Below are positions 20,339 through 22,254 of a stretch of DNA of 64,000 nt, piece after piece. Each line of letters opens with the position of its first letter. Position 1 is the first letter of the stretch. This DNA is from Bradyrhizobium septentrionale. Its GTDB lineage: Bacteria; Pseudomonadota; Alphaproteobacteria; Rhizobiales; Xanthobacteraceae. The DNA is taken from positions 7,458,501 to 7,522,500 of the forward strand of contig NZ_CP088285.1 in assembly GCF_011516645.4 (NCBI RefSeq), given 5' to 3'. The notes below the pieces were generated by a model, which searched no databases, was not told where the DNA came from, and saw only the letters and a list, made by a program, of their open reading frames with translations. A program made the position numbers and the translations under genes.

Positions 20339-21592
20339 ATGACCGCGAAAAGGCGGGCGCGACGCATTGCCTCGGACGAGGCCACTGCATGGGCGCGCAA
20401 TCTCGAGCTGGGCAATCCTTACGCAAAGAGCGTGCTGCGCGCGCTGGGCGAGTATGTCGACGGCGATGGCATCTGCTGGGTCGGCATTCCGTCGCTGGCG
20501 GGGGATTGCGATCTATCGCAGGACACGGTTCGACGGCGGCTCGCCTGGCTCGAGGAGATCGGCGCGATCGGTCGGACGCCGCAATGGCTCGATGAGAACG
20601 GCCGCCGCAATGGTGATGGTCGTGGCAAGCGCACCACGGATCTGATCCGGCTGCTTGTCGACGCGGATATCGACGCGATCGAGGCGCGGGCCGCCGGGCG
20701 CAACGTCGACGAAAATCAAGTAAATTCAAGGTCGATTAGCCCTAGCTGGCAGCAAGGGCTAAATTCCGGCGCCGACGACGTTAGCCCTCGGCCAGCCCTC
20801 GGCCAGCCCTCGCAGTGCAGCCAGGACCTAGACTCTTTTGAACCTGAACCTGAAGATCCCCCTAAGTCCCCCTCCGGGGGATTTCCGGATGATCGCGAGA
20901 CGATCGAGCAAAGCGAGCCTGTTGAGTTTGCAGCGGCATTCGAGGGCTATGTCGGCCATGAGGTCATGCGGCGCGACCTGGCGCTCGAGGAGTTCCGCCT
21001 CCTGACGCAGGAGGATCGCGTCTGGTGCGGGCATGCCGTGCCGCTCTACATGGCGAAACTGCGCGAGCTCAAACAGCGCCGGCCGATGAATTTTCATCTG
21101 TGGGTGCGGACGCGAGGTTTTCGTGAATTCCCTGCGCCTGGTGCTGCGCCGGCAAAGCCCGCGCCTCCGCAACGGCGGTTCGTGCAAGGGGATGAGCTCA
21201 AGGGCTTGGCGGTGGCGCCGCAGATCGCCGAGCGGCGCGAGCTGCGCATCTTCAGCGAAAAGGATCTCGGCGAGGGCGTCTGGGTGCAGCGCGGGCCGCA
21301 GGCTGACCTGGCGGCAATGGCCGAATTTGCGGGCACTGATCGCGACGCGTGGCAGGTCGTCGACCAGGGAACGCCGCAGTTTGCCGCCTGGCGCGATCGC
21401 CTGGCGTTCTGGATCGGCGCCGAGCCGCACGCCGAGCGGATCTTTCTCGAGCCGTTTGATCCGAGCGTTCACGGCGTCTCGGCGTCGCATCCAAATTTCC
21501 GGTTGAGGAAGGCAAAGCAGGGATTTCGCGTGCCGGCGCCGTGGCCGCCGCGACGCGATGGAACGTGGCAGGGCGCAGGGGAGAGCGAATGA
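20339..21592 (+). CDS. Phage replication initiator-like protein (helix-turn-helix)
   Basis: 417 aa. The N-terminal 95 residues are a winged helix of the replication-initiator/O-protein type (GEYVDGDGICWVGIPSLAGD, then LSQDTVRRRLAWLEEIGAIG). A disordered linker (about 125-185) is encoded by DNA with direct and inverted repeats that look like origin iterons. The C-terminal domain (from about 200) contains REFPAPGAAPAKP and several aromatic-rich blocks. ATG preceded by AGGAAG. By position and domain order it likely plays the role of lambda O. No helicase or loader gene is adjacent, so host DnaB loading is expected. Confidence 0.7.
   Translation: MTAKRRARRIASDEATAWARNLELGNPYAKSVLRALGEYVDGDGICWVGIPSLAGDCDLSQDTVRRRLAWLEEIGAIGRTPQWLDENGRRNGDGRGKRTTDLIRLLVDADIDAIEARAAGRNVDENQVNSRSISPSWQQGLNSGADDVSPRPALGQPSQCSQDLDSFEPEPEDPPKSPSGGFPDDRETIEQSEPVEFAAAFEGYVGHEVMRRDLALEEFRLLTQEDRVWCGHAVPLYMAKLRELKQRRPMNFHLWVRTRGFREFPAPGAAPAKPAPPQRRFVQGDELKGLAVAPQIAERRELRIFSEKDLGEGVWVQRGPQADLAAMAEFAGTDRDAWQVVDQGTPQFAAWRDRLAFWIGAEPHAERIFLEPFDPSVHGVSASHPNFRLRKAKQGFRVPAPWPPRRDGTWQGAGESE
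20711..20812. other. Candidate replication origin inside the initiator gene
   Basis: An AT-rich stretch (GAAAATCAAGTAAATTCAAG) is followed by the hexamer AGCCCT four times direct (20738, 20783, 20794, 20805) and once inverted (20755-20760, inside AGGGCTAA). The last three copies form an 11-bp tandem repeat AGCCCTCGGCC. TTAGCCCT at 20736 and AGGGCTAA at 20755 form a stem. Layout resembles lambda ori, with iterons in the middle of the O gene. Function is inferred. Confidence 0.5.
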
Positions 21593-22254
21593 ACATGCAA
21601 TACCGCAAGGGGCAGATCGTTGGATATGTCGAGACCAACGATCGATTGGCGGTGCCGGCGACGCCGGCGAGCTGGCGCGTGCTGCAGGTCATGCCTGGCC
21701 GCGACGCGAAGGTCATCAAGGCTTTCGGCGAGCGCTGCATCAGCGGCTGGTCGCCGACCGTCGTTCATTTCGTCGAGCGCGGTAGCGGTCAGGTGGCCCG
21801 GCGTCCGCATCTCGGCCGGCGGATCGAAAAGCCGTTTCTGCCCGGCCTGATCTTCCTGCCTGATTTCGAGCTAGGTCGTCTCGCCGAGATCCGCAGCATT
21901 CCTGACGTCGACAATCTGCTCGAGTTCGGAGAGCTGCGATCGTGGCTCAACGCGACCGAGATGCAGCTGCTGCGCGACATCGTCAAAATCGAGAACATGC
22001 TGCCGTCACGGCGCCGATGGGCACTTGCGCAGCTGTTCCTGCGGTATGGCTTCATCACGGTCGCCGAGGTCAAAGACGAAACGGAAATGAGAGTAGGGCG
22101 CGAGATCCGCGTCGCCGATGGCCTGTTCTCCGGCTTTCGAGCGCTGATCGAGCGAGTTGACTCAAAAGGCCGACTCAGCGTCTTAGTCAGCGACGGAAAG
22201 CACGGCGTCAAGGTAAGTGGTTTGACCGAGGCGCAGATCGAGCTGATCGACTAA
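21589..22254 (+). CDS. NusG-like transcription elongation/antitermination factor
   Basis: 221 aa. An NGN domain is recognisable (SWRVLQVMPGRDAKVIKAFG, then RIEKPFLPGLIFLP), and residues 165-205 form a KOW domain (VGREIRVADGLFSGFRALIE, RVDSKGRLSVLVS). NusG, RfaH and related paralogues bind the RNA polymerase clamp and alter pausing and termination. ATGA overlap with the replication gene. Immediately downstream lie three strong hairpins and then the packaging/structural genes, so a role in letting transcription run through into late genes is plausible. It is clearly not housekeeping nusG (no secE or ribosomal genes). Confidence 0.8.
   Translation: MNMQYRKGQIVGYVETNDRLAVPATPASWRVLQVMPGRDAKVIKAFGERCISGWSPTVVHFVERGSGQVARRPHLGRRIEKPFLPGLIFLPDFELGRLAEIRSIPDVDNLLEFGELRSWLNATEMQLLRDIVKIENMLPSRRRWALAQLFLRYGFITVAEVKDETEMRVGREIRVADGLFSGFRALIERVDSKGRLSVLVSDGKHGVKVSGLTEAQIELID

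What the first reader, a model, noticed from the sequence alone, without database searches (positions are those of the whole stretch)
20711..20880. Putative phage replication origin inside the initiator gene
Within the disordered-linker part of the replication gene (20339-21592), the DNA holds AGCCCT four times direct and once inverted, three of them as an 11-bp tandem repeat, next to an AT-rich stretch. Eleven is not a multiple of three, so the repeat is odd for a coding tandem repeat but fits one DNA-helix turn per binding site. Lambda and related phages place ori as iterons in the middle of gene O. Here the protein has an initiator-like winged helix at its N-terminus. Together this suggests a self-binding initiator with an intragenic origin.
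Basis: partly seen in the sequence, partly recalled or inferred. Interest (0 to 1): 0.7.

Follow-up and report, generated by a model that had tools for sequence, protein, structure and literature searches.

The report
Phage origin hidden inside initiator gene
A Bradyrhizobium prophage appears to keep its replication start site inside the gene for the protein that starts replication, and in related phages one residue of that protein changes together with the repeated DNA letters it is thought to read, so the pairing can be tested directly.

Summary
The repeats are real. They are one part of a roughly 150-bp DNA element (about 20729-20881) inside an O-like initiator gene of a Bradyrhizobium prophage: a 27-bp dyad TTAGCCCT-N11-AGGGCTAA, AGCCCT half-sites every 11 bp, a low-stability GAACCT-repeat stretch, and a C5/G5 palindrome. 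Within this gene alone the repeat is only modestly unlikely (p 0.02). Relatives make the case. In 46 representative genes, hexamer repeats at offset 11 number 195 against 10.7 in synonymous shuffles. Excess codon conservation is confined to residues 131-180. Half-sites switch together (AGCCCT to GACCCT) although read in three frames, and the switch tracks wing residue 97 of the same protein: K in 122 of 131 AGCCCT-type proteins, R in 22 of 22 GACCCT-type ones. Best reading: a lambda-like intragenic origin bound by the N-terminal winged helix of its own product. Binding and replication are inferred, not shown. Two details change: the conserved low-stability stretch lies downstream of the repeats, and the site is a fixed dyad plus half-site array, unlike lambda's iterons. 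New variant of a known kind. The same dyad also occurs outside initiator genes, in pairs in some integrative islands.

The parts
20339..21592 (+). O-like replication initiator gene, 417 aa
   Evidence: Open frame; Pfam HTH_36 at residues 26-75, E 1.3e-5; phrog_1032 replication initiation protein E 1.1e-12, phrog_391 O-like E 3.6e-8
20372..20692 (+). Winged-helix DNA-binding domain, residues 12-118
   Evidence: AlphaFold2 model, pLDDT about 79-93 over these blocks; helices 12-21, 27-38, 50-57, 61-74, strands 77-80 and 102-105, helix 111-118
20627..20629 (+). Codon of wing residue K97, which co-varies with the half-site letters
   Evidence: Top of 125 columns by mutual information
20729..20878 (+). 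Stretch under selection at DNA level (residues 131-180)
   Evidence: Synonymous codon identity 0.30-0.47 above expectation in its five windows, 0.04-0.19 in the 36 other windows, 45 genes; residues 125-190 disordered in the model
20736..20762 (.). 27-bp dyad TTAGCCCT-N11-AGGGCTAA
   Evidence: fixed centre in relatives; exact copies in the own genome only here and in the second prophage initiator
20781..20810 (+). Array of three AGCCCT half-sites (20783, 20794, 20805), 11 bp apart and in three reading frames
   Evidence: offset-11 excess in 46 genes
20823..20831 (.). Degenerate inverted half-site; most relatives shown read AGGGCCTAA at this place
   Evidence: By eye; window letters
20828..20857 (.). 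Candidate unwinding stretch with GAACCT repeats
   Evidence: Among the 0.3% least stable 30-mers of the prophage; least stable place of the gene in 26 of 45 relatives; near-frozen codons at residues 164-172
20867..20881 (.). C/G palindrome TCCCCCTCCGGGGGA
   Evidence: a palindrome 15-35 nt after the anchor in 41 of 45 relatives

Best explanation
The element at about 20729-20881 is the prophage's replication origin, placed in the part of the initiator gene that codes for a disordered linker. The N-terminal winged helix of the gene product binds the half-sites: two face each other in the fixed 27-bp dyad, three stand in line, one per helical turn, in the array. Assembly there would melt the adjacent GAACCT stretch, and the C-terminal part would help bring in the host helicase. 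Shown here: the repeats, their geometry, DNA-level selection, concerted change of half-sites, covariation with wing residue 97. Inferred: binding, melting, helicase recruitment and origin function.
For: Offset-11 hexamer repeats 195 against mean 10.7, maximum 21 in 60 synonymous shuffles; inverted offsets 17, 19 and 21 (one centre) 59, 59 and 49 against about 8, in 46 genes. Fixed dyad centre with changing arms, exact at the corresponding place in 32 of 46 genes. Codon freezing only in residues 131-180. Three array copies in three frames. Half-site letters switch together. Residue 97: GL-K 122, GL-R 9, GS-R 22, GS-K 0 of 153 proteins; 8 independent pairs on supported branches, same way 6.9 on average, opposite 0, median p 0.016; later-found proteins 9 of 9 GS with R and 14 of 16 GL with K. 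O-like families and winged helix plus disordered linker. Lambda keeps iterons and an AT-rich stretch in the middle of gene O (passages of PMC7466680 and PMC3349717).
Against: No binding or replication data. In this gene alone p is only 0.02. 9 of 131 GL proteins have R97; the AGCCTC type is mixed K/R. With all 153 rows on fast trees only 2 or 4 supported independent pairs remain, too few for significance. 12 of 46 genes have no exact dyad. The unwinding stretch is least stable in 26 of 45 only. GC skew shows no turn. No lambda P-like gene among the ten neighbouring ORFs scanned.
Confidence: 0.85

Rival explanations
1. The sites bind the initiator, but as an autoregulatory, copy-control or incompatibility site; the true origin is elsewhere in the prophage.
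For: The covariation shows recognition by the protein at most, not origin use. Dyads outside initiator genes in islands show that the site can stand alone.
Against: The frozen stretch goes beyond binding sites to a low-stability tract and a palindrome in fixed order, as an origin would need; lambda-type origins have iterons next to an AT-rich tract (PMC7466680 passages).
Confidence: 0.09
2. The dyad and palindrome act as RNA hairpins in the initiator message.
For: The arms can pair and change in a compensating way; the C/G palindrome has variable loops.
Against: The dyad spacer is fixed at 11 although loops could vary in steps of 3; the direct array, which needs no pairing, changes with the dyad; the change follows a residue of a DNA-binding wing.
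Confidence: 0.03
3. The sites bind another phage or host protein, for example small terminase, a recombination factor or a regulator.
For: In L160 the dyad pair lies just after a small-terminase gene, and the islands L160 and L163 share a serine recombinase.
Against: Half-site type follows a residue of the initiator itself across independent switches. L163 carries the dyads after its own initiator gene with no small-terminase match in the stretch tested.
Confidence: 0.02
4. Chance or a by-product of a repetitive linker peptide.
For: p 0.02 for this gene alone; the linker is disordered.
Against: Synonymous shuffles do not reach the observed counts, codons are frozen, and one DNA word is kept in three frames.
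Confidence: 0.01

Closest known systems
Lambdoid phage origin within gene O (lambda, P27, 933W)
   Same: Origin in the middle of the initiator gene, repeated sites bound by the gene's own product, adjacent easily melted tract (PMC7466680, PMC3349717 passages). CCCT/AGGG core letters also occur in lambda iterons (primer table of PMC7466680).
   Different: Lambda has four 18-bp inverted-repeat iterons and a 38-bp AT-rich tract, each iteron bound by two O proteins (PMC6022878 passage). Here a 27-bp dyad with 11-bp spacer plus single half-sites every 11 bp, HTH_36 in place of the Pfam O family, and an antiterminator-like gene downstream.
RepA_N plasmid replicons such as pSK41
   Different: No RepA_N match in Pfam; the fold match is tied with unrelated winged helices; phage setting.
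Other HTH_36 / phrog_1032-type phage initiators
   Same: 6 of 15 testable genes also hold intragenic hexamer clusters beyond synonymous shuffles (L126, L130, L135, L136, L012, L013), in part 22-24 or 10-12 bp apart.
   Different: Other repeat letters and spacing; 9 of 15 show no significant cluster.

Membership tests
Lambdoid O / ori-in-O | Initiator of O-like sequence family | tested here: met
   phrog_391 and phrog_345 replication initiation O-like, E 3.6e-8 and 2.3e-6; Foldseek BFVD match to a putative replication protein O, E 8.1e-7, with low TM scores
Lambdoid O / ori-in-O | Pfam family of lambda O proteins (Phage_rep_O, name recalled) | tested here: not met
   Only HTH_36, HVO_A0261_N and HTH_DeoR listed at E up to 1
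Lambdoid O / ori-in-O | DNA-level repeats in the middle of the initiator gene | tested here: met
Lambdoid O / ori-in-O | Iterons as 18-19-bp inverted repeats | tested here: not met
   27-bp dyad and 11-bp direct half-site array
Lambdoid O / ori-in-O | Easily melted tract beside the iterons | tested here: met
   20828-20857, 0.3% least stable; 26 of 45 relatives
Lambdoid O / ori-in-O | Helicase-loader gene P directly downstream | tested here: not met
   The next ORF scanned, 21541-22254, matches NusG and a transcription antiterminator
Lambdoid O / ori-in-O | Protein binds the repeats and fires theta replication | not testable with these tools
   Needs bench work
RepA_N plasmid initiators | RepA_N domain by sequence | tested here: not met
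   No RepA_N match at E up to 1 in Pfam
RepA_N plasmid initiators | Fold of the N-terminal domain | tested here: inconclusive

The most novel reading that the evidence does not exclude
One wing residue (K97 or R97) is the specificity key of a self-recognising origin: K reads AGCCCT, R reads GACCCT. Because the origin sits in the initiator's own gene, its sites switch with the protein, splitting these Bradyrhizobium phages into replication groups that do not fire each other's origins. Integrative islands that carry the same dyad outside any initiator gene exploit or titrate the initiator of a phage of the matching type.
Probability: 0.35. Interest if true: 0.78.

Novelty: new variant of a known kind. 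Interest (0 to 1): 0.62.

Why it matters
If true, a phage initiator family that databases mostly name hypothetical or helix-turn-helix protein (also hypothetical protein in the phage record ppBeUSDA76-1) gets a function and a mapped origin. The paired change of one wing residue and many DNA sites is a natural experiment on how a self-contained replicator changes its specificity, and it predicts from sequence which prophages can activate each other.

Tried and rejected
Rejected: coding-repeat by-product; RNA hairpin as the main function (fixed spacer); the upstream AT-rich stretch as the conserved unwinding element; GC skew as a marker, flat. A sequence search of solved structures with A1 gave two chance-level matches. 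Fold searches gave general winged helices. In IMG/VR the exact dyad occurs in 31 stretches, 24 in initiators; the other 7 look, by eye, like unrelated hairpins in mostly AT-rich DNA. The shorter GACCCT pattern gave 10 places in 9 of 265 genomes: 3 in initiators, 1 in an island-like stretch (L198), 6 apparently unrelated. Seven genomes carry an initiator at least 86% identical to that of island L160; the dyad was seen beside it in G109 and G130, not in the five others fetched; none of the 13 stretches fetched has a dyad with up to 3 mismatches. The AGCCTC type (L027 and kin) was not resolved. A rough scan of wider initiators used wrong ORFs for some loci and was replaced, where 5 of 20 loci were too short to test. 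Seven paper searches listed, among the rows shown, no paper whose title or abstract start describes this origin; only open papers are held. Passages seen: PMC7466680, PMC3349717, PMC6022878, PMC5703833, PMC10127595 (one irrelevant hit). PMC4488673 was seen in the search listing only.

Full report
What is there. The window is part of a Bradyrhizobium genome (G000, contig C2; closest proteins are from Bradyrhizobium). The gene lies in a prophage: an IMG/VR contig of 41,650 bases holds a 100% identical copy. It codes for 417 residues. Pfam finds HTH_36 at residues 26-75; PHROGs finds replication-initiation and O-like families. AlphaFold2 gives a confident winged helix, a disordered stretch (125-190) and a confident C-terminal part. 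AGCCCT lies at 20738, 20783, 20794, 20805 and inverted at 20755. For this gene alone the cluster is modest, p 0.02 against 100 synonymous shuffles.

Anatomy across relatives. 59 unique loci have an N-terminal match; 46 representatives were used for repeat statistics. Four modules recur in most linkers in one order: a dyad TTAGCCCT-N11-AGGGCTAA, sometimes doubled; half-sites 11 bp apart; CTAATCTCTGAACCTGAACCTGAA; a C-run/G-run palindrome. Direct hexamer repeats at offset 11 number 195 against a mean of 10.7 and a maximum of 21 in 60 synonymous shuffles; offset 22, 65 against 7; inverted pairs at offsets 17, 19 and 21, which share one centre, 59, 59 and 49 against about 8. Offsets 6 and 12 are also in excess, from the GAACCT repeats. 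The N-terminal and C-terminal parts show some other offsets in excess (for example 26 and 27) but not offset 11. Exact 8-nt arms with spacer 9, 11 or 13 occur in 34 of 46 genes, in 32 of them at the corresponding place (L025 and L080 elsewhere); 12 have none. The arms differ (TTAGCCCT, CTGACCCT, TTAGCCTC, TTAGCCCC, TTGCCCCT) while the spacing does not.

Selection on DNA. In 45 codon-aligned genes, synonymous codon identity exceeds the codon-usage expectation by 0.30-0.47 in the five ten-residue windows from 131 to 180 (20729-20878) and by 0.04-0.19 in the 36 others. The three array copies sit in three reading frames (phases 0, 2, 1), so one DNA word is read as S-P, A-L and Q-P-S. Selection on the peptide alone does not explain this.

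Concerted switching. In several relatives the half-sites are GACCCT/AGGGTC in place of AGCCCT/AGGGCT. The peptide reports it: SP...GL becomes DP...GS in the dyad. Of parsed proteins the last array copy reads Q in 103 of 103 GL types and R in 17 of 18 GS types; 32 of 153 could not be parsed. The middle copy reads A or G in all 103 GL, and T, G or A in GS.

Covariation with the protein. The GACCCT-type (DP/GS) proteins of the first set all carry R at position 97, between the two main strands of the wing, while nearest AGCCCT types carry K; for three of them (P0053, P0054, P0062) the domain is 93-94% identical. Column 97 has the highest mutual information of 125 columns, 0.335 against 0.227 for the next. 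In 153 unique proteins: GL-K 122, GL-R 9, GS-R 22, GS-K 0. In 28 proteins found after the hypothesis was written down, 9 of 9 GS have R (7 are plain DP/GS; one was classed by eye) and 14 of 16 GL have K (one classed by eye); 3 were unparsed, all R. Three of the nine look like near copies of loci already seen, and the search was made with GACCCT-type queries, so this is only partly independent. By DNA, K97 loci have more AGCCCT than GACCCT in 36 of 37 (one tie); R97 loci have more GACCCT in 12 of 17, more AGCCCT in 1, ties in 4; L027 counts as GACCCT by one stray hit although its sites are AGCCTC. GGGACT occurs in 7 R97 loci and 1 K97 locus; AGGACT in 11 K97 and 4 R97 loci. On a quick IQ-TREE of 69 chosen rows there are 8 independent pairs on supported branches; residue 97 goes the same way in 6.9 on average, the other way in none, median p 0.016, range 0.008-0.06. 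On fast trees of all 153 rows 2 or 4 supported pairs remain, with nearly all going the same way and none the other, too few for significance. The nearest GL row has K in 21 of 22 GS rows. Arginine reading guanine is established knowledge of protein-DNA contacts, and A to G at the first half-site base fits it; the contact itself is inference.

Low-stability stretch and palindrome. In relatives the least stable place is at the GAACCT stretch in 26 of 45, upstream of the dyad in 8 of 45, elsewhere in 11; in the window the GAACCT stretch (20828-20857) is among the 0.3% least stable of the prophage (prophage limits are my arithmetic from the contig). A palindrome lies 15-35 nt after the anchor in 41 of 45; loops run from 2 to 12, partly because the script could pick the first of two C-runs.

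Specificity in genomes. The exact dyad occurs at two places in the own genome, both initiators; the second initiator is 82% identical. In 265 Bradyrhizobium genomes it occurs at 23 places in 19 genomes; the pattern read backwards occurs at none. By coordinates, and for G208 by sequence, 16 are in initiator genes or remnants. The other 7, in 6 genomes, start in no kept ORF of 100 aa or more, though small ORFs of 102 and 119 aa overlap parts of them in L160 and L163. L160 and L161 share a 6.9-kb core at 84.6% identity; in L160 it holds a serine recombinase, an HTH_36 initiator, a ParB-methyltransferase and a small terminase, then two dyads 134 bp apart (the second with 2 mismatches), then cargo; L161 has one dyad within 3 mismatches. 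L163 has an HTH_36 initiator, then two exact dyads 120 bp apart; L165 shares that segment (393 bp, 84%) and L198 resembles it by eye, its first dyad being of GACCCT type. L162 and L164 have single dyads in ordinary surroundings and may be chance or hairpins. The island initiators of L160, L161 and L163 show no hexamer cluster of 4 or more. This suggests, no more, that some islands exploit or titrate a phage initiator; ectopic lambda origins are reported to arrest the phage (PMC4488673, title and abstract start in a search listing).

Wider family. Of 15 other testable HTH_36-type initiators, 6 have intragenic hexamer clusters beyond 100 synonymous shuffles (p 0.01 each), in part with 22-24 or 10-12 bp steps; 9 do not. 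So the intragenic plan reaches beyond this group, with other letters and geometry.

Verdict. Observation confirmed; interpretation supported, with the unwinding element moved downstream. It works like lambda's ori in O, but the iteron form, the Pfam family and the downstream loader gene were tested and not met, so it is not filed as a lambda-type origin.

Noticed in passing
L160:10000-10160, L161:9989-10015, L163:9977-10123, L165:9992-10138, L198:1501-1655: Dyads of the phage origin type outside initiator genes, in pairs 120-134 bp apart in four of the five, in island-like stretches; L160 carries serine recombinase, own initiator and small terminase. Possible phage satellites.
   Followed up: partly
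L136 linker: A wider relative has a long intragenic repeat array with 22/23-bp period inside its HTH initiator gene.
   Followed up: partly
G145:C37, G162:C1:2522117-2523350, G249:C1:258389-259653 (L078/L087, L090/L084, L079/L086): In three genomes the initiator is split into an N-terminal and a C-terminal frame at or after the linker; broken copies or natural split genes, not decided.
   Followed up: no
window 21541-22254: NusG/antiterminator-like ORF overlapping the end of the initiator gene (Pfam NusG 1.7e-4, phrog_6386 9.4e-9).
   Followed up: no
G000:C2:7932817-7934064: A second prophage in the same genome has an initiator 82% identical with the same half-site type, so the two could cross-react.
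   Followed up: partly
L027 and P0058, P0085, P0094, P0096, P0099, P0108, P0111: A third half-site type, AGCCTC/GAGGCT, seen in DNA in L027 and inferred from peptides in the others; they share LSDDT in the recognition helix, but residue 97 is mixed.
   Followed up: partly
L061 linker: GACCCT half-sites spaced 12 rather than 11 bp, in frame, an exception to the 11-bp rule.
   Followed up: no
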